Below the pieces are notes generated by a model. That model searched no databases. It had not been told where the DNA came from and was given only the letters and a program-made list of their open reading frames with translations. From a virus, in the IMG/VR virus record IMGVR_UViG_3300020156_000002, positions 62,001 to 126,000 of that record: a stretch of 64,000 bases of DNA; one strand, written 5' to 3'. The position numbers were made by a program, and so were the translations under genes. Positions 14,503-53,444 of this stretch are shown here, one piece after another (the first letter of the stretch is position 1; each line of letters opens with the position of its first letter).

Positions 14503-15228
14503 CTATTTATCGTTTACTAAAGCTTTAATTGTATTACTTCCAACCTCTCCATCTACTGTAATTTTACAAGATTGCTGAAATGCTTTTACATATTTTAAAG
14601 TATCTTTTCCAAAAACTCCATCTATAGATACATTGTAACCTGCTTCATTAAGTTCAAACTGTAGCCATTTAACACTTTCTCCCTTGCTACCTTTAACTAG
14701 CAGGCTTAAAGGTTTGTCGTATGGATTATTTTTCTTTGTTTTTGTAGCCACTGGTTCTTTAGATTCATCATAGTCTATATAATTAAAAGTTAACCAATGT
14801 GTAAAACGAGTATCAGAAATTTTACTTTTTACGCAGCCATAATTTATACCCTTTTCTTCAACACAATATCCATTTCCAATATAAACTCCCACATGACCGC
14901 TATGCCATAATACGGCTCCAATAGGAGCTTTATCTATATCTTTTATTAATCCTCTTTTTGATGCAGTAGAATATAATTGAGCAGAACCTAATATTTTATT
15001 GGTATACCAACTTATAAGACCTGAACAGTCGCAACAAACCTTACCTATAAATTTCTTAGCTTTAGATTTATAAACCAAAGTAAACATATTTGGATAATTT
15101 TTTGCTAAATTATTTAATCTATTTTCTGTAAAGATTCCATCTGCACCTTTCGCTCCGTAAACGTATGGAACCCCTAATTTACTAATTGCAAAATCAGCTA
15201 ATCCTTTTCCAGTTAATTTATTTGCCAT
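14503..15228 (-). CDS. Endolysin: NlpC/P60-type peptidase with peptidoglycan-binding domain
   Basis: Residues 1 to about 155 form an NlpC/P60-like domain with the catalytic Cys in CCDCSGLISWY (C68) and His in LWHSGHVGVYIGNG (about H112). Residues of about 165-241 form a PG_binding_1 domain (LLVKGSKGESVKWLQFELN, VDGEVGSNTIKAL). The enzyme cleaves peptide stems of peptidoglycan at the end of infection. There is no signal peptide, so it needs a holin. It is the last gene of the lysis cassette, downstream of two membrane-protein genes. AAGGAGGCAATACT precedes the ATG. Confidence 0.9.
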   Translation of the reverse strand: MANKLTGKGLADFAISKLGVPYVYGAKGADGIFTENRLNNLAKNYPNMFTLVYKSKAKKFIGKVCCDCSGLISWYTNKILGSAQLYSTASKRGLIKDIDKAPIGAVLWHSGHVGVYIGNGYCVEEKGINYGCVKSKISDTRFTHWLTFNYIDYDESKEPVATKTKKNNPYDKPLSLLVKGSKGESVKWLQFELNEAGYNVSIDGVFGKDTLKYVKAFQQSCKITVDGEVGSNTIKALVNDK

Positions 15229-15301
15229 AGTATTGCCTCCTTAAATAAATAAAAGAGGAGAGAAGATCAACTTCCCTCCAAGTATCAATTTTATAATAAA
15301 A

Positions 15302-15664
15302 TTATTCTTTTTTTGTATCTGTTCCAATAACAATATTTTTTATTGCACTGTTTGTTTCTAACAACTTTTTCATTTCTTCCAGAGCTTCATCCACCCATGC
15401 ACTGAATGTCTCAAAAGAAACTAATTTTGCAGCCACAGGAAATTTAGTAATAAACATGTCATATACGGTGCGAAGTTTTAATATTCCTGTTTGACTACCC
15501 AAGATTCTTTCTGCTTCTACTACAGCATACAGCAACCATTTTTTGATTTTCTTTACTTGATCCTTACTTGGGAGACCTACAAATTTATAAATTGCATATC
15601 CTATAGCTACTAATACTGCTATAACACCAACGATTACCATCCAATTGTTAATAATAAAATCCAT
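15302..15664 (-). CDS. LLH-family holin (putative)
   Basis: The protein (120 aa) has one N-terminal membrane helix (WMVIVGVIAVLVAIGYAIYKF) and a long amphipathic C-terminal region with VKKIKKWLLYAVVEAERILG and a FETFSAWVDEALEEMKKLL end, the pattern of phage holins of the LLH family. It would form membrane lesions that release the endolysin. It is immediately upstream of the endolysin gene. Confidence 0.8.
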   Translation of the reverse strand: MDFIINNWMVIVGVIAVLVAIGYAIYKFVGLPSKDQVKKIKKWLLYAVVEAERILGSQTGILKLRTVYDMFITKFPVAAKLVSFETFSAWVDEALEEMKKLLETNSAIKNIVIGTDTKKE

Positions 15665-15683
15665 AATGAAACCTCCTATAATT

Positions 15684-15705
15684 AAAAAAGAACCATCTCT
15701 GGTTC
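15684..15705 (-). terminator. Terminator-like hairpin inside the lysis cassette
   Basis: GAACCA loops to TGGTTC with a GAGA loop on the minus strand, followed by six U. It lies between the two putative holin genes and is one of the many internal hairpins of the leftward operon. Confidence 0.7.
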
Positions 15706-15722
15706 AGTTAATAAGTACGATA

Positions 15723-16016
15723 TTATTCGACTTCTTTTGTCTCAACAGAAACATCTTCAGTTAATCCTTTTTCTTTTAATTCATTATGTTTTTCACAAAA
15801 TGTTTCAAAGAACGATTTTACAAGGTAAGGAACAAAAGTTCCAATTATAATAGTAACAACAGCTTTACTTAAGCTTTCGGCAATTTCTGTCTTTCCTATA
15901 AACGCCAATATATAGCTACATGTAACCCAGAAAACACCGCACCATAAAAGCCGATTAGTCCATTTTTTAGTAAATGTTATAATTTGCTTATCTGTAAATT
16001 TGAATTTCTTTTTCAT
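15723..16016 (-). CDS. Two-helix membrane protein, possible second holin or holin regulator
   Basis: Two hydrophobic segments are visible in 97 residues (LLWCGVFWVTCSYILAFIG and VVTIIIGTFVPYLVKSFF), with a basic N terminus and an acidic tail. Small proteins of this form next to an LLH holin are typical phage lysis-cassette members. The exact role (holin, antiholin) cannot be read from the sequence. Confidence 0.6.
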   Translation of the reverse strand: MKKKFKFTDKQIITFTKKWTNRLLWCGVFWVTCSYILAFIGKTEIAESLSKAVVTIIIGTFVPYLVKSFFETFCEKHNELKEKGLTEDVSVETKEVE

Positions 16017-16025
16017 CGCAGCCTC

Positions 16026-16436
16026 CTAATCAGAAACAATAAGTGGCAATTTGCGAACCTTATGTACAATTGTTGTTACGTAACTATTAGCGTGTAAAAT
16101 CTCAGTATAAACTGTATACATGTCCTCTATTGCCTGTAATTGATATTGGTCTATTTCTTTTCTTTCAAGTGCATCATTACAAGCCGATACAATACTATAT
16201 CTAATTTGTATTTTTGTTATTTCGAATAATGCATCAAATTTTAATAACAAGTCTTTATAAGATGACTTTAATTCATTAATTTCTTTGCTGTGATTATTTA
16301 CTGTCTCATGAAAATCTTCATTAGCCTTTTTTATTTTGTAAGCTTTATTAAAATTAGTCCAGAACCACCCCCCTATATTAATTAACGCTAATACAATTCC
16401 TATTACTAACCCCGCATTTTGATTTAACCATTCCAT
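16026..16436 (-). CDS. Membrane-anchored coiled-coil protein, first gene of the lysis cassette
   Basis: One N-terminal membrane helix (AGLVIGIVLALINIGGWFW) is followed by a helical, coiled-coil-prone body of 136 residues in total. The gene ends 9 nt before the putative holin. It may be a spanin-like or lysis-timing factor; Gram-positive hosts do not need spanins, so the role is open. A minus-strand mRNA reaching this gene would include the region covered by the plus-strand RNA at 16526-16590. Confidence 0.6.
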   Translation of the reverse strand: MEWLNQNAGLVIGIVLALINIGGWFWTNFNKAYKIKKANEDFHETVNNHSKEINELKSSYKDLLLKFDALFEITKIQIRYSIVSACNDALERKEIDQYQLQAIEDMYTVYTEILHANSYVTTIVHKVRKLPLIVSD

Positions 16437-16652: not shown

Positions 16653-18950
16653 TTATTCCATATTGTTTATTATTTTTTTAATTAACCATTTACTAAAATT
16701 CACATAGCTAGTACGGTCATTTGTGTGAAATCTGTGTATAGTATGTCCTATTCCATGCTGAACACCACCTCCACTTGTAAATAAAACAGTATCTTCAATA
16801 AAACTAAAAGGTTCTGTTATATTTGTTCCATTTTCACTGTTATATTGTTGTACATATGTTTGGTAATTATTATTAAAAAGCATTGGTATAATAGAAGCAC
16901 ACCATATATTTCTTGTATCAGCCATTAAAGTAGTAGTATCGTGATTTTGACTGAGATATGTTTGGAAATCAGATGTGTCTTTACTATAGTAATATAAAAA
17001 CCATTTAAACAAGTTTGATGTAGTTGAATCAAATAATTCGTTGTATTGAGCGTTAAAATATGAAGTATCATTTCCAGTTGTCCACAATCCATTCTGGAAG
17101 CAAGGAATCCAATAAATAGGCAAGCCGGAATTCATTATGTTCAAGTAAGCATACTCGTTTAGCCACACATTTGTTTCTAGGTAAGTTCCCTCATAATCAC
17201 CTGCAAATACATAAATTTTATCTACTTTATCTATAAACAAGGATGGATTTCTATTATATGCAGATGATATATCTCTCATACTTCCTACTCCTAAAATAGT
17301 TGTCTTTTGATTTGCTTTTTTGATTTTTTCTAACAATATTTCTATATTATTTTGTGTTTGAATACTAGCACTTAATCCTATTTTATCAGAATCCGATAAA
17401 TTAACATCCAACCCAAGATAGTAAGAAATATTTTTGTTTGTTACAGTATTTAGATTATCTATTATTTCAGTTCCAGTAGAATTTAATGTAGCAATATCTC
17501 CTCTGTCCAAAGATATAGTTAGTGCAATTTGTATTAATGAATAAGCCATAACAGTATCAAAGTAATCATCAAAATCACCATTTTTTTGTATATCAGTGGA
17601 TAGTATTACATTGTTTGGTAATGCCTGAATAGTATTATCAACATTTATAATATTCCAAGCAAGGCTCCATCCCGTAGTAACATTTCCATATCTATAAAAT
17701 AGTTTATCACTTGTATAAAAATACTGCAAAAAAGCATTTACTTCATTATCTAATGACCTTACCGTTATTAATGTATACCATGTATATCCTAAAATATTAT
17801 ATAATCCAAGCGCAATCGTGTGTGATAAGTTGGTTGTTATTCCTAGTGGAAATTCGTCTGGTGTTGGCATGGTATCATATAAAGAATTCCCCTTACCGTT
17901 AAGTTTAGTTAATTCATCAACTTCGTTTACAGCACTAACCAAATCAGCGTTTGATTGGGTTTGGAGTTGAGATTTGTCACCAATATATTTGAAAATGTCA
18001 GTAGCTTTATTTTCGGTGTCATATACAGTTGTCATCATATTGCCACCAGTACCATCCGCACCTTTCGCAGCAATACATTTCCACCACGTATTATCTGCAT
18101 TAGCTATAGGAGAATGTCCTGAGTTAGCAGTAGTGGGGGATATACATTGGTATGAGGCGCCAAACTTTGTTATATGATTACCAACAATATAATTTTTTGT
18201 GTCATCATATGTTTCTAGTATTTTATAAGCGTCATAAAATTCTTGTCTTGTTGTTTCGGCAGTAGCTCTATTTGTTTCAGCAATCACCCTTAATGCTTCA
18301 GCACTTTGTATGGTAGTATTTGTTTGATTTGCAGTATTAGCTGCATTAGTGGCATCAGTTGCTGCATCATTTGCTAAAGTAGCCTTTTCATCAGCAAGAG
18401 TGGCTTTTGAATCTGCTAAAGTAGCTTTTTCATTTGCTAAAGTTGCTGCAGCATTAGCAGAAGTTGCGGCATTGTTTGCATTTGTAGTGGCTGTTTTACA
18501 TGCTTCTACCTGTGTAACCACATCTCCGACTTTTAATAAAGCTTCTGTTAAAGCGGTAAATTCTCCAGTTTTTACAATAAACTGTTCTATATTCACACCT
18601 TTTTCAATTAACATAGTTGATGCAAATGTAGAAGTTGTTCCACCAGTGGCAGAATCAACAATTGTAAAAGTACAAGGGTGTCTTCCGTTTAATGCAGAAA
18701 TCGCAGAAGTAACAGTAAATTTAATTTTTCCATCAGTTGTAACAGGGCAATTATTAAAAATTGGTTCTGCATTTACACGAGACATAGAAAATGTAACCTG
18801 TGCAGTTGATGGGACTATGTAGTCATCTGATCCATTTACAAGTTTTATGTAAAAAACTCTGTCTATATTGTCTCCTTGTGGTATATCAATATAACAATAT
18901 TCGGTTCTTTTACTAATATTAAGAGTTATTTCCTGTGGTATAAGTGCCAT
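16653..18950 (-). CDS. Receptor-binding/upper baseplate protein with nucleoside-hydrolase-like C-terminal domain
   Basis: The 765-residue protein starts with a BppU-like (DUF2479) domain (about 1-140, IDIPQGDNIDRVFYIKLVNG). An alanine-rich coiled coil follows (about 150-235, with repeated heptads such as ANEKATLADSKATLADEKAT), then a carbohydrate-binding-like module (YIVGNHITKFGASYQCISPT, WWKC) and a pyocin-knob-like stretch (GWSLAWNIIN). The last 320 residues contain STDIQKNGDFDDYFDTVMAY, like the DTDxGxDxDDA Ca/nucleoside site of inosine-uridine hydrolases, and TTILGVGSMRDISSAYNRNP and KIYVFAGDYEG, like their second motif block. It probably binds and may process a host surface ligand. It is the last structural gene before lysis. 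Confidence 0.7.
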   Translation of the reverse strand: MALIPQEITLNISKRTEYCYIDIPQGDNIDRVFYIKLVNGSDDYIVPSTAQVTFSMSRVNAEPIFNNCPVTTDGKIKFTVTSAISALNGRHPCTFTIVDSATGGTTSTFASTMLIEKGVNIEQFIVKTGEFTALTEALLKVGDVVTQVEACKTATTNANNAATSANAAATLANEKATLADSKATLADEKATLANDAATDATNAANTANQTNTTIQSAEALRVIAETNRATAETTRQEFYDAYKILETYDDTKNYIVGNHITKFGASYQCISPTTANSGHSPIANADNTWWKCIAAKGADGTGGNMMTTVYDTENKATDIFKYIGDKSQLQTQSNADLVSAVNEVDELTKLNGKGNSLYDTMPTPDEFPLGITTNLSHTIALGLYNILGYTWYTLITVRSLDNEVNAFLQYFYTSDKLFYRYGNVTTGWSLAWNIINVDNTIQALPNNVILSTDIQKNGDFDDYFDTVMAYSLIQIALTISLDRGDIATLNSTGTEIIDNLNTVTNKNISYYLGLDVNLSDSDKIGLSASIQTQNNIEILLEKIKKANQKTTILGVGSMRDISSAYNRNPSLFIDKVDKIYVFAGDYEGTYLETNVWLNEYAYLNIMNSGLPIYWIPCFQNGLWTTGNDTSYFNAQYNELFDSTTSNLFKWFLYYYSKDTSDFQTYLSQNHDTTTLMADTRNIWCASIIPMLFNNNYQTYVQQYNSENGTNITEPFSFIEDTVLFTSGGGVQHGIGHTIHRFHTNDRTSYVNFSKWLIKKIINNME

Positions 18951-19333: not shown

Positions 19334-19678
19334 TTAATAATAAATCCTTATAAAGCCATCATAACTTTCACCTACAAGAACAATAGTTATATAATTCCCA
19401 TCACTATGATATTGAATCATATCAACATTATCAGCAAGAAAAGAGTGCAATGCATATTGGTTGTCCCACAATATTTCATCTGCATCACTACAAATCACGA
19501 TACCTTGAACTAATTCCATTGTTAGATTGTATAACTCATAAGTACAGGGTTCATCGTTATCACTAATCCATTCTATGATAGTATAATGGTGAGGTGCTTG
19601 CCAATTATCATATTCTTCTAAAAATTCAATAAGATGATTAATTCTTGATTCTTGAACAGTAGGATAGATGTTAAGCAT
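19334..19678 (-). CDS. Antirepressor-coupled acidic partner protein, copy A (114 aa)
   Basis: The start overlaps the stop of the antirepressor in the string AATGCTTAA, with AGGAGG inside the end of the antirepressor gene, so it is translationally coupled. The protein aligns along its whole length with the product at 36010 (shared PT, FL, PH-Y-I, YEL-NL, LW, ITI and IRI-Y positions) and weakly with the one at 33974. All three lie directly after a regulator gene. I do not recognise the family. A partner that modulates the antirepressor, or a small effector it controls, is an inference from the coupling. Confidence 0.75.
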   Translation of the reverse strand: MLNIYPTVQESRINHLIEFLEEYDNWQAPHHYTIIEWISDNDEPCTYELYNLTMELVQGIVICSDADEILWDNQYALHSFLADNVDMIQYHSDGNYITIVLVGESYDGFIRIYY

Positions 19679-20450
19679 TGGCGTGTGCCTCCTGCAATTT
19701 TTCTAAATCAAATTCATCTTGCATATCCTTTTTGTTAATAAGTTTATATATGTAATTTAATCCTTTGGGTGAAACCAATGTAACACTACCAATCTTACCA
19801 TGCCTAGTTTCTTCTACAACCACTTTGAACATTCCATTATTTCTAAATCTTCCATATGGAACATTATAATTGCTTTGGCGAGTTAGAACTTTATTTTTTC
19901 TCAAGAAATCCATTAATTTTGTCCTACCGATTTCTACCATTCCTGCAACATCTATAAATTGAAGATATCCATCTGAGTCCATTAAATCTGAATATGCTTG
20001 TGCTTTTGGTTTTAATTCTGATATAATAGTATTCTTTTCTTGGATGGTTTTTTCTGCAATTTTTAATGCCTTTGCCATAATTAATTCTGGTGAATCCTCT
20101 TTAGAAATAGGAATATAACCGCCTGTAAGACGAATTTGTTTTAGATATTTTTTGATTTCATTCTTTAATGGTTTAGATTCTTTTTTACGTGAAGCCATTA
20201 GTGTATCATATAGACCATCTTCATTTACAAATACCTTTTCTTGTTCTCCTCCAAGGGTGTCAATTAAAAATACACCCTTTTGATCGTCTGATAATTCAGC
20301 ACTTTTAATCATTTGCCTGTAATTTGATATTCCAAGCCAATTTGCAATATCAGATGGTAAAAAATATGGATTTTCGATGCTTCCATAAAAATTAATTTCT
20401 TTTCCTAGTATTTCTTTCCTGCATACAATTTGTAATTTTACTTTTTTCAT
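19671..20450 (-). CDS. Phage antirepressor, module A (Bro-N / KilAC-type)
   Basis: The N-terminal region has FYGSIENPYFLPSDIANWLG and VFVNEDGLYDTLMASRK, the pattern of BRO-N antirepressors. A linker coiled coil (about 120-150) leads to a C-terminal KilAC-like/ANT domain (GYLQFIDVAGMVEIGRTKLMDFLRKN, SPKGLNYIYKLI). Antirepressors bind or remove a lysogeny repressor. The ATG at 20450 is preferred since GGAGG is 8 nt away; a TTG at 20465 opens a longer frame. It lies downstream of a small HTH gene, with an opposing short RNA in the gap, as in the P22 immI arrangement. Confidence 0.85.
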   Translation of the reverse strand: MKKVKLQIVCRKEILGKEINFYGSIENPYFLPSDIANWLGISNYRQMIKSAELSDDQKGVFLIDTLGGEQEKVFVNEDGLYDTLMASRKKESKPLKNEIKKYLKQIRLTGGYIPISKEDSPELIMAKALKIAEKTIQEKNTIISELKPKAQAYSDLMDSDGYLQFIDVAGMVEIGRTKLMDFLRKNKVLTRQSNYNVPYGRFRNNGMFKVVVEETRHGKIGSVTLVSPKGLNYIYKLINKKDMQDEFDLEKLQEAHANA

Positions 20451-20472
20451 ATTCATTTCCTCCAAAATATAA

Positions 20473-34843: not shown

Positions 34844-35893
34844 TTATTCTTCAGCTTTAATTTCATCTGGTGTGATAGTATCATTGGTCAAAGCATCTTT
34901 TAATTTAGCCAAACCTTTCCATTTTCTATCTTTTGCCGTGTTGTCATTATAGATATCTACTAATGCATCTGAAGACCATTTTTGGAGTTCCTGAACAAGT
35001 TCTTTTTCAAGACCTATACCCAAAAGATAGCTACACCAAAAATGCCTGCCTGCGTGAAGATACCAATGTTGAGATAAGTGTGAATCCCATTTTTCAATCC
35101 AACTTCTTATTGTACTAACTTTTGCAGGTGTACCATCAGACTTAATAAATATAAAATCATGTTCTTGACCATGTTCTTTCATAATCTTTTCTCTAATTGG
35201 CAAATATTTATCGTAATAAGGCACAAACATATCTTTAATCAAATAACGTGGGATTTCTTTTGCATTGACCCCTCTACCTTTTACCTTTATTTCTCTTGTG
35301 GTTTCCAAAAACAATCCTTCAAACGCAGTATGATTATAATCAATCATGTCCGTTGTAAACCTTACAATTTCAGAAGCTCTTGTTCCGGAAGACATTATTA
35401 AGGCTAAAAGGCATTGTTCATTAGATTTATTTATCTCTCCTAACCAGTCCATTAATTTATCTAATTCCTCTTTTTTAAAGACAGATTTCTTACGAGTATT
35501 TTCTTTTGGCATTTTGTCAATAAACACTAATAGATTTCTAAAATTAGGATATTTCTCATCATAAAATTTCTCAATAAACTTTGATAATTCAGACAAACTA
35601 CTATGTACTTGCGAATATCTATTTGCTTTCCATTGCAATTCGGTAAGTCCATAATCAAAGAATTCCTGCATTTCAATTTTCTTTATCTCTGTAAATGGTT
35701 TGTTGTCATTTTCTAATAGATTCCATACGAAAAATATATTGAAATTTGATTTATAAGCTTTTACACTTTTTGGGCTACTTTTTGTTGCAAAGTTCTTCAA
35801 ATATTTATCAACCAACTTTTGACTTTCTGGATTGATTTGTTTGATTAACTCTGGTGTTGTTATTTGTTTTCTAAATGTTTTTCTTGCTGCCAT
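34844..35893 (-). CDS. Second tyrosine recombinase
   Basis: The 349-residue protein has an N-terminal SAM-like domain (SPKSVKAYKSNFNIFFVW) and a catalytic domain with R172 (GTRASEI), H280/R283/H284 (LHAGRHFW), W306 in the place of the last His, and nucleophile Y315 (VDIYND). It is not beside the attachment site but among tail genes, next to regulators. It may mobilise the cassette, resolve dimers or invert DNA; no inverted repeats pointing to a switch were seen. Confidence 0.8.
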   Translation of the reverse strand: MAARKTFRKQITTPELIKQINPESQKLVDKYLKNFATKSSPKSVKAYKSNFNIFFVWNLLENDNKPFTEIKKIEMQEFFDYGLTELQWKANRYSQVHSSLSELSKFIEKFYDEKYPNFRNLLVFIDKMPKENTRKKSVFKKEELDKLMDWLGEINKSNEQCLLALIMSSGTRASEIVRFTTDMIDYNHTAFEGLFLETTREIKVKGRGVNAKEIPRYLIKDMFVPYYDKYLPIREKIMKEHGQEHDFIFIKSDGTPAKVSTIRSWIEKWDSHLSQHWYLHAGRHFWCSYLLGIGLEKELVQELQKWSSDALVDIYNDNTAKDRKWKGLAKLKDALTNDTITPDEIKAEE

Positions 35894-37881: not shown

Positions 37882-40800
37882 TTAATTACTAGATTTTAAT
37901 ATATCAATTTCAGACTTAAGTTCTTGTATTGCTTTTACTAAATATGGTATGAGTTTTGTATCCGATACACCCCAAGCTGCTTTACTTTCATCTTCAGCTT
38001 TGTCAACACATTGTGGGAATACTTCGTATAATTCTTGCGCAATAAATCCTTCACTTTCAACATACTTATCTTCGGATACAGTAAATTTACCATTTTCATC
38101 TAAATACCATTCGTGTTTATTAAAAGTACATGGTTTTATTGCACATACTTTATCCAATACGCTATCCATAGGTCTTATATCTGATTTTGTTCTTTTATCT
38201 GATGTTGAAGTCCAACTGGTTCCATTTTGAGCCAAGTATACGCCAGTAGTATTACTAGTTCCAGCATTTGAAACATATAACCCACTATTACCAGACGCAT
38301 ATCTAAATATATTTGCCAAAAGTGTACCAGTTGTATCAGTTGCCCATCTGATACCATATGCACCACTATTACCATTTAAAGATATATCATTATAATTGTA
38401 TATAGAAGTAGTATGCACCTGTGAAATTTTATTAGTGTTACTACCAACATAGAATACATTAGTTGCATTCGGTATAATATCAGCGCCAATTGTAATACTT
38501 GAATTATTTACAGCTAACCATTTTGTTCCGTCCGCACCGTATAAAAATGTTGCAGGGGAACTCATTAATATTCTATTTCTAGTGCCATCGTTTATAGCGA
38601 AATTTGTATTTGCTTTTATAGTATTTGCCAAATACAAATCTCCTTGAAGATATAAATCTTTCCATCTAAAACTAGATGTACCTAAATCATGAGTATTATG
38701 ATAAGCTGGCACTGCATTTGCATCTATTCCAAATAATGTGTTAGCTAAATATATTTTCTTAGTTCCGTCAGCACTATATAGGTAAGTATGAGTATCATAA
38801 ACCGTCATTCTATCTCTTGTACCATCATTTATCGCAAATCCATTTCCCACAATGATATCATCACCAAGATATATATCACCTGAAAGATATAAATCCTTCC
38901 ATCTCACACTTGAAATCCCTAAAGTAAAGGTGTTGTGTGTTACAGGATGTAGTCCGTCACCACTTATATTTGCAATACCAGTACCATTACTCTGCAAAGT
39001 TACAGTACCACTTGTACCATTTAATGTTAGTGCATTTCCAGAACCACTATTAATAGTTGCAATATTTGGAGTTGTTAAAGTTTTATTTGTAAGTGTCTGT
39101 GCTCTTGTAGTTGTAACTATATCTACACCATTAACTTGAACAAAACCACTACCTTTAGTTAATAAATTCAAAGATATATTAGTATCTCCACCAGTTGCAG
39201 ATATTGTTGGATTTCCACCAGTTGCTGCATTTGTAATTGTAATCTCATTTACAGCAGAATCTACGGCAGTAGGGAATTTAATTAATTCATTCCCGTTAGC
39301 ATCGGCTATATAACTATCGCTTGTTATTCTTGGAGCAGCTAATGTTTTATTTGTAAGAGTGTCTGTCGTATTTGTACCAACCAAAGTTGTTGCTGCGTCA
39401 GGAATTATTACTGTTTTATTACTTGTAAATTGCGTTTGCACTATACCAGTAACATTTGTAGAACCTGCTACATTAAAACTTAGTTTTTTAGTTTGGTCAA
39501 CGGCATCAACAAAATATGTAGTATTATCTGATAATGATTTATTATATAAATTCTGTGTATCAAGAGTGGTAACAACGTCAACACCGTTTGCTTTAACTTT
39601 GCCAGCTCCAGTTGGAACTAAGTTAACATCTTTATTTGTTCCACCAGACGATAAAGTTAATGCATCATCACTTATAACAGAACCTTTAATTAGCAAAGGT
39701 TTCTTAATAGACACTTTGGTAATTTTCCAATAATCGTTTGGTAAACTATAAGTGTATTCTATGCCAGTATTTGTGCTTGTATATATTTGACCATCGACTA
39801 AAGTTGTATTAGGAAAGGTAGCAGTTTCTGATTCCTCTGTATTATCTTGAATAAATGTTTGTGTTGCTGGAATCCACAGCAAATGAGTACTCATAGTAAC
39901 GTCATAGATTATCTTAGTAGAAGTATTTCCAGATTCTTTAAATATTGCCCTCTCTATTGTACTCATTGATAGGTACGCTGTTGATGGTGACATTATCCTA
40001 TTATGACTAATAATAAAAAGCGTACCCGCATATCTTATAAAACTACTAGCGAGTTCAACTCCTGTAAATTTTAATGTCAAGGATAAATTGTAAACAGTTC
40101 CTTCTACGATATCTGAAAGTATTGTTACTTCTCTTGGCGCATTCACTTCTGTTGAATCTAACAATGCACTAGAAAGCGTCTCACCTACGCTGTAATGGAT
40201 TTTGTCTCCCAATGTTTCCTGATAAACTGTAGTACTATAATCATTTGATGAACCAACTTTAAATCGTAAACTCAAGCCATTTACAGGATATGAGACAAAT
40301 GTATTTGGTGATGATAAATTAAATTTACTAAGGAACTTATCAAGTACTATTTTCCAATATTTATTTGTATTGTCCCACGTATACACCCTTTCTGCTCCCA
40401 CTAGCACTTGTCCTTCCGCTGGATTGGTTGGAATAGCAATAGACGCAATCTGTCCGGTATATTGAATGTAAGAAAATGAATTTTTTCTATATAACATTTG
40501 TACATGTAAATCCGTATCGAGATAGAAAAACTCTTTAGTATTCCAATCAACATTATTTAATAATGCTAATCTAGCTGCTGAACTTCCAGAGAATCCTATC
40601 GCATCTCCACTCGTACCAATTGGTATTGATTGATTTAATTTTAATGATTTCCATTCGCCACTTACGTATTGTAATAAAGCAACCACTCCAGTACCATTTG
40701 GATTGGTTTCAGAAACTTCGTCATATGTAAATAGGAATTGTACATCTGCTATACCAGTTGGAAATGCGGCTTGTACTTCTGATAAATTAAGATATTGACC

Positions 40801-41019
40801 TCTATAACTTGCAACACCTGCATGTGTAAGTAAATCATATGTATAAGGTAAACCATCTTTTAAAAATGTTAAAGTATGAATAGTATCACCATTTAAAAGT
40901 GTTTCTTTTAACGTCATTCCTTGAAAATTTGCGGCTGCTAATTTAGTTGCATTGTCTTTTGACATACTATCAATAAGTCCAACAGCAACTCCTATATCTA
41001 ATCCGCTTTGTTGTGCCAT
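37882..41019 (-). CDS. Tail fibre with S74 intramolecular chaperone
   Basis: The 1045-residue protein has an N-terminal virion-binding region, many short beta repeats (ITSDS, TLTNKTL, NGVDIVTT), and about three copies of a segment with LGTSSFRWKDLYLQGDLYL and FAINDGTRxR (around residues 700-870). It ends in a peptidase S74 domain (TSDKRTKSDIRPMDSVLDKV, SEGFIAQELYEVFPQC, and a C-terminal coiled coil). The S74 domain trimerises the fibre then cleaves itself off. It is upstream of immunity-like module B; two S74 proteins occur in the window. Confidence 0.85.
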   Translation of the reverse strand: MAQQSGLDIGVAVGLIDSMSKDNATKLAAANFQGMTLKETLLNGDTIHTLTFLKDGLPYTYDLLTHAGVASYRGQYLNLSEVQAAFPTGIADVQFLFTYDEVSETNPNGTGVVALLQYVSGEWKSLKLNQSIPIGTSGDAIGFSGSSAARLALLNNVDWNTKEFFYLDTDLHVQMLYRKNSFSYIQYTGQIASIAIPTNPAEGQVLVGAERVYTWDNTNKYWKIVLDKFLSKFNLSSPNTFVSYPVNGLSLRFKVGSSNDYSTTVYQETLGDKIHYSVGETLSSALLDSTEVNAPREVTILSDIVEGTVYNLSLTLKFTGVELASSFIRYAGTLFIISHNRIMSPSTAYLSMSTIERAIFKESGNTSTKIIYDVTMSTHLLWIPATQTFIQDNTEESETATFPNTTLVDGQIYTSTNTGIEYTYSLPNDYWKITKVSIKKPLLIKGSVISDDALTLSSGGTNKDVNLVPTGAGKVKANGVDVVTTLDTQNLYNKSLSDNTTYFVDAVDQTKKLSFNVAGSTNVTGIVQTQFTSNKTVIIPDAATTLVGTNTTDTLTNKTLAAPRITSDSYIADANGNELIKFPTAVDSAVNEITITNAATGGNPTISATGGDTNISLNLLTKGSGFVQVNGVDIVTTTRAQTLTNKTLTTPNIATINSGSGNALTLNGTSGTVTLQSNGTGIANISGDGLHPVTHNTFTLGISSVRWKDLYLSGDIYLGDDIIVGNGFAINDGTRDRMTVYDTHTYLYSADGTKKIYLANTLFGIDANAVPAYHNTHDLGTSSFRWKDLYLQGDLYLANTIKANTNFAINDGTRNRILMSSPATFLYGADGTKWLAVNNSSITIGADIIPNATNVFYVGSNTNKISQVHTTSIYNYNDISLNGNSGAYGIRWATDTTGTLLANIFRYASGNSGLYVSNAGTSNTTGVYLAQNGTSWTSTSDKRTKSDIRPMDSVLDKVCAIKPCTFNKHEWYLDENGKFTVSEDKYVESEGFIAQELYEVFPQCVDKAEDESKAAWGVSDTKLIPYLVKAIQELKSEIDILKSSN

Positions 41020-41748: not shown

Positions 41749-42900
41749 TTACATAGTTATATACTTAAATTGATATCCTTTATAATAGCTTATTTCGCTT
41801 CTACAACATCTTTTAATTAATTCTGGATTAAACAAAACACCAAAAGTTGAACATGATATATCAGATAAATATTTAGCAGATTTATAAATTCCAAGACTAT
41901 TGCCATCCTTTAAAACTTCTACAAATTTTGAGCCATGATTATATAAACACCAACCAAGTTTTTCACCCACGGCTAAATATTTGCATATTGTAGCTTTATC
42001 AACATTAAAATGTTTTTCCATTTGAACAGGATTCATTGTCGGATTTTGATTTTTAAAATCACTAATTTGCTTTATTATATTTTTTGTAGCATATTCTTCA
42101 CACTCATACCAATTAATCTTTGAAATGTCAAATAAATTATTTAGCTCACTAGTAACAATTGAATTTTTTATAAATTTAATATTTGATTCTCTACAATCAA
42201 GTTTTATGTAATGATTTATTTTATTATTTAACGCAATTTTTTCTTTTAATATATCTGTCGATTTGATATTATGTAAACCAGTCATAAATCCACCTGATTC
42301 TTCATAATGTTGTTTTCCATTGACTTCAATAATACATTTCAATGAATTAATATAAAAATCATATCTATAAGAAGAACACCATGAAAAATTTCTATTACTT
42401 AGTTGATAAATATAATCAAAACCCAGTTGCGATAATATATTTAACATAACTTTTTCAGGGTAACTTATGCCATCTGAACACGTACAACCAAAACCATGTC
42501 TTTGATATATTTTATTTATAGATACTGATTTTGTTTTGATTTTTCCGCAATCAGGGCATATGGGAAATATCTTCTTATTTGAAGATTTAGTATATAACTT
42601 AGCCTCTTCATATCCTCCTTGAAAATACTTAACCATCCACGGAGCAGTAGTTGGAATATCATTAATGCCTAAAATTAATTGCTTTCCATGACACACAGGA
42701 CACCCTCTGCCTTGTTTTAAGTCATATTCACTTATATAAATGTCTTCAGCATTACATTTATGGCATTTACATTTGTAGAATTTAATGTTGTGATTTGGTC
42801 TTGATTTATAAAAGCCCTTTTCGTATTTTCTCTCTAAAATTTCAATATTTCTTTTATCGTCTTTGAATGTTTGACCTACACTATAAATAAAATCAACCAT
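41749..42900 (-). CDS. Freestanding homing endonuclease-like protein with zinc ribbons and NUMOD-like end
   Basis: Residues of about 40-140 carry CxxC pairs (CKCHKC, CPVCHGK, CPDCGK) forming treble-clef zinc ribbons. The centre contains a Vsr/EDxHD-like nuclease segment (PEKVMLNILSQLGFDYIYQ, SYRYDFYINSLKCIIEVNGKQHY, with D, E and QH residues). The C terminus (DGNSLGIYKSAKYLSDIS) resembles a NUMOD DNA-binding module. Such genes spread by cutting intergenic sites. It interrupts the tail operon between the fibre and upstream tail genes. Confidence 0.75.
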   Translation of the reverse strand: MVDFIYSVGQTFKDDKRNIEILERKYEKGFYKSRPNHNIKFYKCKCHKCNAEDIYISEYDLKQGRGCPVCHGKQLILGINDIPTTAPWMVKYFQGGYEEAKLYTKSSNKKIFPICPDCGKIKTKSVSINKIYQRHGFGCTCSDGISYPEKVMLNILSQLGFDYIYQLSNRNFSWCSSYRYDFYINSLKCIIEVNGKQHYEESGGFMTGLHNIKSTDILKEKIALNNKINHYIKLDCRESNIKFIKNSIVTSELNNLFDISKINWYECEEYATKNIIKQISDFKNQNPTMNPVQMEKHFNVDKATICKYLAVGEKLGWCLYNHGSKFVEVLKDGNSLGIYKSAKYLSDISCSTFGVLFNPELIKRCCRSEISYYKGYQFKYITM

Positions 42901-52310: not shown

Positions 52311-53444
52311 TCAAATAGGAAAAGAACTAGAAAGTTCTAGTTCCTTATCTAATATTTCTTCAATATTTTCATAATTCCAATACCATATTTCTAACAGTTT
52401 GATATTATTATCAATAGCATATTGTTTCTTGCGTCTGTCATGTTCTTTCTGATATTCAAATTGTTCTAGTGTTTGTTGTTTAGCTGTACCATCATGAAAT
52501 TCTCCTTGATATTCGATTAATAAGTTGTAATCTTGTAAATAAAAATCATAAGATAATAATCCATTTCCTATTCCAGTTAGTCCATCAAATTCTTTTTGCC
52601 AAATAAAATTAAGATTATTGTCGAGTAAATATTTTCTTGTTCTTAATTCACCTAAAGAAGAATTACATAATGGACATCCAGAGTTTTTATAAAGAGAATG
52701 AGGAGTAGTCACCCACATATGATTACATATATTACATTTAACCGTTATATCATCTGTAATTCCAGTATATTGACTAAGTATTGTAATATCATTATCATTT
52801 TGATTATGTAGTTTTAACATAAATTCTTCATGTGTTCTTCTTTGTCTTTCATTGGCACAAATTGGACATCCATGACCAGCCAATAAATTTTGTGGGATTG
52901 CTTCAAATAATTCATTATGTATTTTACATAGAAACACCGCTTTCTTACTAACCCCTTCGTAGCCATCAAACAGGATAATATCTTTATTTACATTAGATAA
53001 TCTTTCTATAAAATCATTTTTTGGAATTACTTTTGATAAATTTCTGTGTTCAATGGCACATTTAGGACAACCTCTTCCTTGTAATAATTTATTTGGAGTA
53101 ACATACCATATGTTATTACAAGTAACGCATTTGCATAGTATTTTAGTCTTTGCGTCAACATATTCACTGAGTATTTTTATATCTGTTTTAAGATTATAAA
53201 ACGCTTTTATAAAATCGTCATGAGAATGTCTGTTTTTATCATTTGTAATTTTACTTGAACATTTATTATGCCCACAGCCTAAAGCTAAAACGGCAGGAGT
53301 GGTAAAGAATAAGTCGTTGCAAATTAAACATCTACATTCTATTTGCTCATTACGTGACTTATATTCACCGATTATTTCAATTGTTTTATTTAGTTTGTTG
53401 TTATATTTTTCTTTAAATTCAACTAATGTATATTTTTTACTCAT
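52311..53444 (-). CDS. Freestanding homing endonuclease-like protein with zinc-ribbon repeats
   Basis: The 377-residue protein has about four repeats of a zinc-ribbon module (CRCLICNDLF, CKCVTCNNIW, CPICANERQ, CNICNHMW). A C-terminal PD-(D/E)xK/Vsr-like nuclease follows: LGELRTRKYLLDNNLNFI, LLSYDFYLQDYNLLIEYQGE, FHDG, and EHDRRKKQYAIDNNIKLLEI. It lies between the portal and protease genes, a common landing site for intergenic homing nucleases. It probably confers spread rather than a virion function. Confidence 0.78.
   Translation of the reverse strand: MSKKYTLVEFKEKYNNKLNKTIEIIGEYKSRNEQIECRCLICNDLFFTTPAVLALGCGHNKCSSKITNDKNRHSHDDFIKAFYNLKTDIKILSEYVDAKTKILCKCVTCNNIWYVTPNKLLQGRGCPKCAIEHRNLSKVIPKNDFIERLSNVNKDIILFDGYEGVSKKAVFLCKIHNELFEAIPQNLLAGHGCPICANERQRRTHEEFMLKLHNQNDNDITILSQYTGITDDITVKCNICNHMWVTTPHSLYKNSGCPLCNSSLGELRTRKYLLDNNLNFIWQKEFDGLTGIGNGLLSYDFYLQDYNLLIEYQGEFHDGTAKQQTLEQFEYQKEHDRRKKQYAIDNNIKLLEIWYWNYENIEEILDKELELSSSFPI

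What the first reader, a model, noticed from the sequence alone, without database searches (positions are those of the whole stretch)
16653..18950. Receptor-binding protein ending in a nucleoside-hydrolase-like domain
BppU-type N terminus, alanine-rich coiled coil, carbohydrate-binding-like module and a 320-residue C-terminal domain with STDIQKNGDFDDYFD and TTILGVGSMRDISSAYNRNP, matching the metal/nucleoside loop and second block of inosine-uridine hydrolase folds. A tail tip with such a domain suggests an enzyme acting on a ribosyl- or glycosyl-containing surface ligand, which I have not seen described.
Basis: partly seen in the sequence, partly recalled or inferred. Interest (0 to 1): 0.7.

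Follow-up and report, generated by a model that had tools for sequence, protein, structure and literature searches.

The report
Phage tail protein with nucleosidase-like tip
The tip of a tail protein that a bacterial virus probably uses to recognise its host is built like an enzyme that normally cuts sugars off nucleosides, and its relatives sit in secreted bacterial and prophage proteins and in a prophage cell-wall-degrading enzyme, which hints at an undescribed way for phages to bind or trim sugars on bacterial surfaces.

Summary
The 765-aa ORF (16653-18950, minus strand) has a BppU-like beta N-terminus, an alanine-rich coiled coil, a weak CBM5/12-like module and a 318-aa C-terminal domain (residues 448-765). 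That domain is a nucleoside-hydrolase (NH) fold: Pfam PF01156 above cut-off when scanned alone, profile E 2.5e-7 to a solved NH, and a predicted structure whose listed PDB matches are all NHs or NH-like effectors (Z 16-18). It is not a classical NH. It belongs to a separate, fully supported clade that keeps the metal Asp cluster (in a longer loop) and the ribose-binding Glu/Asn, lacks the catalytic-loop His, and adds an invariant W-x-P motif. Nearest relatives are extracytoplasmic: a secreted prophage protein beside tail-fibre, acyltransferase and lysis genes, a membrane-anchored protein in a glycan cluster, and, more distantly, a domain of a prophage endolysin. Phages with the same RBP stem carry other tips. 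Most likely the tip binds, and quite possibly hydrolyses, a furanosyl-containing host surface glycan. Fold and clade are shown; ligand and catalysis are inferred. A non-catalytic furanose binder is the main rival. I found no description of such a tail tip in the literature searched.

The parts
16653..18950 (-). Receptor-binding protein gene, 765 aa
   Evidence: ORF; stem homologous to phage RBP genes in L002/L003 with conserved neighbours
18600..18950 (-). BppU-like N-terminal beta domain, residues 1-117
   Evidence: Model strands 6-117; 29% identity, E=3e-9 to L003 protein that scores BppU_N E=4.7e-10
18216..18569 (-). Alanine-rich coiled coil, residues 128-245
   Evidence: Continuous helix in the model
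18108..18209 (-). CBM5/12-like module, residues 248-281
   Evidence: Pfam CBM_5_12 E=0.0024, below cut-off; same module in relatives L002 (58% identity over residues 227-355) and L003
16656..17609 (-). Nucleoside-hydrolase-fold domain, residues 448-765
   Evidence: PF01156 36.0 bits; structure comparison; profile-profile 97.8-99.6% probability
17565..17594 (-). Metal-loop aspartates D453, D459, D461, D462 (TDIQKNGDFDD)
   Evidence: Aligned with D10/D14/D15 of RihA/B/C; D453, D459, D462 invariant in 18 family members
17166..17177 (-). Ribosyl-binding E592-T-N594-V595
   Evidence: Aligned with RihC AEFNI motif; invariant in 18 members
17100..17111 (-). Family-specific W614-I-P616-C617 motif
   Evidence: Absent from classical NHs; W and P invariant, C 17/18
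16917..16919 (-). D678, candidate third metal Asp
   Evidence: Invariant in the four-member core; alignment to classical D242 is off by one residue and uncertain
14503..16436 (-). Downstream lysis genes (136 aa, 97 aa, holin-like 120 aa, endolysin 241 aa)
   Evidence: Pfam/PHROGs; 136-aa protein and 120-aa holin homologous to L002 neighbours

Best explanation
The protein is a modular phage receptor-binding protein: a BppU-like base holds it in the baseplate, a coiled coil oligomerises it (probably a trimer), and a swapped tip of nucleoside-hydrolase fold contacts the host. The tip belongs to a non-classical NH clade whose nearest members are extracytoplasmic. It probably holds a Ca2+ ion with D453/D461/D462 (and perhaps D678) and grips a furanosyl (ribose-like) residue with the metal and E592/N594. 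The family-specific W614-x-P-C region would replace the nucleobase pocket and fit a non-nucleobase neighbour, such as another sugar of a cell-surface glycan. I think it recognises such a furanoside on the host surface and may hydrolyse it during adsorption. Shown: architecture, fold, clade, conserved site residues, module swap, genomic company of relatives. Inferred: metal, ligand, hydrolysis, role in adsorption.
For: Fold. Conserved metal and ribose residues, and a shared family-specific W-x-P-C, across 18 members forming one clade with 100/100 support apart from 21 classical NHs. Surface role: nearest relatives are exported (signal peptide or membrane anchor by eye, hydropathy). L004 lies among Wzt, WsaF-like and other glycosyltransferase and acyltransferase genes. 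L006 lies in a prophage between a tail fibre gene and acyltransferase, holin and endolysin genes. L018 fuses the domain to Amidase_2 and Glucosaminidase next to tape measure, Dit, Tal and a holin-like gene. Receptor role: homologous RBPs in L002/L003 keep the stem (47-58% identity) and have other tips, as expected of a host-range determinant.
Against: No ligand or activity is known for any member. The catalytic-loop His (HGE) is absent and Ala (Glu in relatives) stands before the candidate third Asp, where classical NHs have His or Trp, so leaving-group activation is not evident. XopQ and Sde_0182 show that NH folds can be inactive binders (PMC8910321). Only one phage with this tip was found.
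Confidence: 0.5

Rival explanations
1. Catalytically dead lectin: the domain uses the NH pocket only to bind a furanose-containing surface sugar, or an ADP-ribose-like group, without cleaving it.
For: His of the catalytic loop and His before the last Asp are not found. XopQ, among the best structural matches (Z 18.3, tied with true NHs), is inactive and binds ADP-ribose; Sde_0182 is inactive and proposed to bind furanose (PMC8910321). An RBP needs only binding.
Against: The front-loop aspartates and the ribosyl Glu/Asn are strictly conserved in 18 members, including exported stand-alone proteins and an endolysin-fused copy where an enzyme is more natural. Loss of leaving-group His does not abolish activity in some NHs (PMC8910321).
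Confidence: 0.33
2. A true N-ribosidase acting on nucleosides or nucleotides near the cell surface, a metabolic enzyme carried on the tail.
For: Same fold and PF01156 membership by score.
Against: Nucleobase-side features are not kept: shortened beta3-alpha3 loop without HGE, and W-x-P-C in place of the GLDVT segment. Separate clade. Known phage NH annotations are separate metabolic genes; E. coli RihC matches phrog_8702, which the tip does not.
Confidence: 0.08
3. The tip targets a host surface protein or another ligand and the NH pocket is a leftover.
For: RBP tips evolve fast, and one phage alone cannot show constraint on the pocket.
Confidence: 0.07
4. Assembly chimera that joins a phage RBP stem to a bacterial gene.
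For: Only one contig with this combination was found.
Against: One uninterrupted ORF; GC3 of tip and stem equal (0.188 and 0.183), while relatives' loci have GC 0.38-0.63; flanking lysis genes syntenic with L002.
Confidence: 0.02

Closest known systems
Classical inosine-uridine nucleoside hydrolases (PF01156; RihA/RihB/RihC, C. fasciculata IU-NH)
   Same: Overall fold; D10/D14/D15-equivalent aspartates; E/N ribosyl motif; the VGSxRDI block aligned with GPLTNI
   Different: Longer metal loop with an extra Asp; no HGE loop; no His before the candidate last Asp; family-specific W-x-P-C and SYF motifs; fused to a phage tail stem; separate clade
XopQ/HopQ1 NH-like type III effectors
   Same: Best-tied structural match (Z 18.3); variant N-terminal Asp motif (DXXXDXDD there, DXXXXXDXDD here); non-metabolic role
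   Different: Those are injected effectors with an extra N-terminal region, binding ADP-ribose; here an extracellular phage tail tip
Sde_0182 of Saccharophagus degradans (NH-like domain with carbohydrate-binding modules)
   Same: NH fold combined with carbohydrate-binding modules; proposed furanose-interacting module (PMC8910321)
   Different: No PF07632 match listed at E<=10; bacterial carbohydrate-metabolism setting; not phage
BppU-type receptor-binding proteins of Gram-positive siphophages
   Same: BppU-like base, coiled coil, exchangeable tip, position before the lysis genes
   Different: Tip is an NH fold; BppU base and RBP stem are fused in one gene here but two genes in L002/L003

Membership tests
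Nucleoside hydrolase superfamily (PF01156, fold level) | Profile score above the family cut-off | tested here: met
   Isolated domain 36.0 bits, cut-off 34.2; full-length protein does not show it
Nucleoside hydrolase superfamily (PF01156, fold level) | NH fold | tested here: met
   AF2 model; listed PDB matches are NHs or NH-like, Z 16.5-18.3
Classical nucleoside hydrolases | N-terminal DxDxxxDD fingerprint | tested here: not met
   STDIQKNGDFDD: aspartates present but spaced DxxxxxDxDD
Classical nucleoside hydrolases | Ribosyl-binding Glu/Asn (AEFN motif) | tested here: met
   E592/N594 aligned and invariant
Classical nucleoside hydrolases | Catalytic-loop His/Trp of the beta3-alpha3 loop | tested here: not met
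   HGE segment missing in the family
Classical nucleoside hydrolases | Last Ca2+ Asp preceded by His or Trp | tested here: inconclusive
   D678 is a candidate, preceded by Ala (Glu in relatives); alignment there uncertain by one residue
Classical nucleoside hydrolases | N-ribosidase activity | not testable with these tools
   Needs an assay
XopQ/HopQ1 NH-like effectors | DXXXDXDD motif | tested here: not met
   Two residues longer (motif from PMC3608555)
XopQ/HopQ1 NH-like effectors | Type III secretion signal and effector setting | tested here: not met
   Fused to a phage tail stem in a tail/lysis gene order
Sde182 NH-like domain (PF07632) | Profile match | tested here: inconclusive
   Not listed at E<=10, but HMMER filters can drop weak matches
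BppU-type receptor-binding protein | BppU N-terminal domain | tested here: met
   Through relative L003 (BppU_N E=4.7e-10; 29% identity); the window's own N-terminus gives no direct Pfam hit
BppU-type receptor-binding protein | Exchangeable C-terminal tip at a conserved genomic position | tested here: met
   L002/L003 stems end in other tips; neighbouring 136-aa protein and holin conserved
BppU-type receptor-binding protein | Binding to a host receptor | not testable with these tools
   Needs binding experiments; host not known

The most novel reading that the evidence does not exclude
The clade is an undescribed group of cell-surface glycosidases of nucleoside-hydrolase fold that cut furanosidic bonds in bacterial surface polymers. 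Phages would use it in three ways: as an RBP tip that trims the receptor, as a secreted prophage protein that alters the lysogen's surface, and as an extra domain of an endolysin.
Probability: 0.33. Interest if true: 0.82.

Novelty: new variant of a known kind. Interest (0 to 1): 0.6.

Why it matters
Known phage depolymerase tips are, to my knowledge, mostly beta-helix lyases and glycosidases, esterases or sialidase-like folds. A tip of nucleoside-hydrolase fold would add a new scaffold for recognising or trimming furanose-containing surface glycans, and would give a testable function for a poorly characterised group of exported NH-like proteins in gut Bacillota and in prophages. The pairing of a secreted prophage copy with an acyltransferase suggests surface alteration by lysogens, which can be tested directly.

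Tried and rejected
Full-length Pfam/PHROGs scans missed the domain; scanning the domain alone solved this. phmmer of the full protein against PDB gave only chance hits. tblastn of the tip, the full protein, L006 and L018 domains against 50,697 phage records found nothing. Three pattern scans of IMG/VR with the tip alone, the W-L-N-E motif or the L018-type profile gave no relative; profile scans gave only L006. Foldseek against predicted viral proteins gave only giant-virus NHs among significant hits. Two Mesorhizobium plasmid hits (27% identity, 72% coverage) were not followed. dN/dS was not attempted: homologues are too diverged. Literature searches for NH domains in tail fibres, RBPs or endolysins found only metabolic NH annotations.

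Full report
What is there. The reading frame at 16653-18950 on the minus strand encodes 765 residues in a virus record of 130,653 bases. It sits between tail genes (tape measure 27819-32423, Dit 26978-27817, Tal-like/S74 protein 23779-26988) and lysis genes (holin-like 15302-15664, endolysin 14503-15228). The predicted structure of the whole protein shows a beta N-terminus (6-117), one long helix (128-245), a small beta module, a low-confidence linker (about 300-445) and an alpha/beta C-terminal domain (448-765).

The C-terminal domain is a nucleoside-hydrolase fold. Four lines agree. Scanned alone it reaches Pfam PF01156 above the curated cut-off (36.0 bits, E=7.9e-9); in the full-length scan it did not appear, and I suspect HMMER's composition filters because of the alanine-rich stem. 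A profile of the domain and three relatives finds solved NHs, best 3t8i at E=2.5e-7. Profile-profile comparison with RihA/B/C and Oscillospiraceae NHs gives 97.8-99.6% probability. AF2 with four sequences (pLDDT 78, pTM 0.81) matches NHs: Foldseek best E=1.6e-8; the 50 rows shown by VIA-align are all NHs or the NH-like XopQ, Z 16.5-18.3 over 240-264 residues. The second, full-length model gives the same answer.

It is not a classical NH. In the alignment with E. coli RihA, RihB and RihC the D10, D14 and D15 positions are D453, D461 and D462, but the loop is longer and holds a further Asp (TDIQKNGDFDD). The ribosyl-binding E/N motif is kept (E592, N594). The HGE segment, which carries the catalytic-loop His, is missing, and the segment after the next strand (GLDVT in NHs) is replaced by a family-specific YWIPCFQN...W...SYF. 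A third metal Asp is not certain: D678 is invariant in the nearest relatives, but the profile alignment puts it one residue from the classical D242, and it is preceded by Ala (Glu in relatives), not His or Trp. Across 18 members, D453, D459, D462, D482, E592, N594, V595, W614 and P616 never vary; D461 is Asn in four members that lack an export signal. These 18 form one side of a branch with 100/100 support against 21 classical NHs; the phage tip pairs with the prophage protein L006 (98/90), inside a four-member core with L004 and L005 (99/99).

Company of the relatives. L004 (40% identity) is a membrane-anchored 370-aa protein in a locus with a Wzt-type exporter, WsaF-like and family 2 glycosyltransferases, an Acyl_transf_3 protein and a PMT-like protein. 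L005 is anchored likewise. L006 (45%) is a 350-aa protein with a signal peptide, in a prophage fragment: baseplate genes, tail fibre, this gene, then an acyltransferase on the other strand, holin and endolysin. More distantly, genome G1076 has four copies: two exported stand-alone proteins (one with a twin-arginine-like lipoprotein signal, by eye) and two 709-711-aa fusions to Amidase_2 and Glucosaminidase (Pfam scored on one of them). One fusion (L018) lies directly after tape measure, Dit and Tal genes and before a holin-like gene, so it is very probably a prophage endolysin. A third branch lacks export signals. The core is rare: none other in the samples of about 390 genomes drawn from each of several Bacillota groups.

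Why a receptor-binding protein. Two IMG/VR phages, L002 and L003, share the stem: residues 227-355 are 58% identical to L002, 205-320 are 47% identical to L003, and both continue into other C-termini. In both, the BppU-like protein is a separate preceding gene; here base and stem are fused. The 136-aa protein and the holin downstream are homologous to L002's (43% and 60%). So the tip has been exchanged at a conserved RBP position. Third-codon GC is the same in tip and stem (0.188, 0.183), which argues against a chimera or a very recent import.

Mechanism. In classical NHs the ion and the Asp/Glu/Asn residues hold the ribose, whereas the histidines serve the base as leaving group (PMC8910321, and general knowledge of the family). 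Here the sugar side is kept and the base side replaced. With the surface, prophage and lysin company, the simplest reading is recognition of a furanosyl residue in a surface polymer whose neighbour is not a nucleobase. Whether it is cleaved is open. For cleavage: strict conservation of the acidic cluster, stand-alone exported copies and the lysin fusion; NHs without the usual His can be active (PMC8910321). Against: the known NH-like proteins with non-metabolic roles, XopQ and Sde_0182, are reported inactive binders (PMC8910321), and an RBP only needs to bind. I put hydrolysis a little ahead of pure binding, with low certainty.

Comparison with what is known. By score and fold it belongs to the NH superfamily; by motif it fails two defining features of classical NHs. 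Its variant Asp motif recalls HopQ1 (DXXXDXDD; PMC3608555) but is longer. No phage NH tip or NH-endolysin was found in the phage collection, PHROGs (E. coli RihC matches phrog_8702; the tip does not), predicted viral structures or the open literature. These are limited collections, so absence is not proof.

Verdict.

Noticed in passing
L018:9427-11556 and L019:9482-11617 (genome G1076): NH-like domain fused N-terminally to Amidase_2 and Glucosaminidase; L018 copy lies in a prophage tail/lysis region, probably an endolysin with an unusual third domain.
   Followed up: partly
L006:7905-9915: Prophage carries a secreted NH-like protein beside an Acyl_transf_3 gene between tail fibre and holin: possible surface-altering cargo; the bacterial locus L004 also has an Acyl_transf_3 gene near its NH-like gene.
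   Followed up: partly
L002:7941-11363 and L003:7893-11491: BppU-like base and RBP stem are two adjacent genes in these phages but one fused gene in the window.
   Followed up: partly
window 34844-35893: Integrase-family protein inside the structural gene region, between tape measure and a second tail fibre (37882-41019).
   Followed up: no
window 41749-42900 and 52311-53444: Two HNH/homing-endonuclease-like genes within the structural module.
   Followed up: no
window 19671-20465: BRO-N plus KilAC antirepressor-like gene just upstream of the RBP region.
   Followed up: no
window 23779-26988: Tal-like protein ending in a Peptidase_S74 intramolecular chaperone domain, so the phage has more than one candidate host-binding protein.
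   Followed up: no
L005:5525-6445: PfkB-type sugar kinase-like gene (read by eye) lies near the L005 NH-like gene, with nucleotide-sugar-type genes further upstream.
   Followed up: no
NZ_AP023244.1:44639-45379 and NZ_CP015319.1:2978-3718: Hypothetical proteins on Mesorhizobium plasmids match 72% of the tip at 26-27% identity.
   Followed up: no
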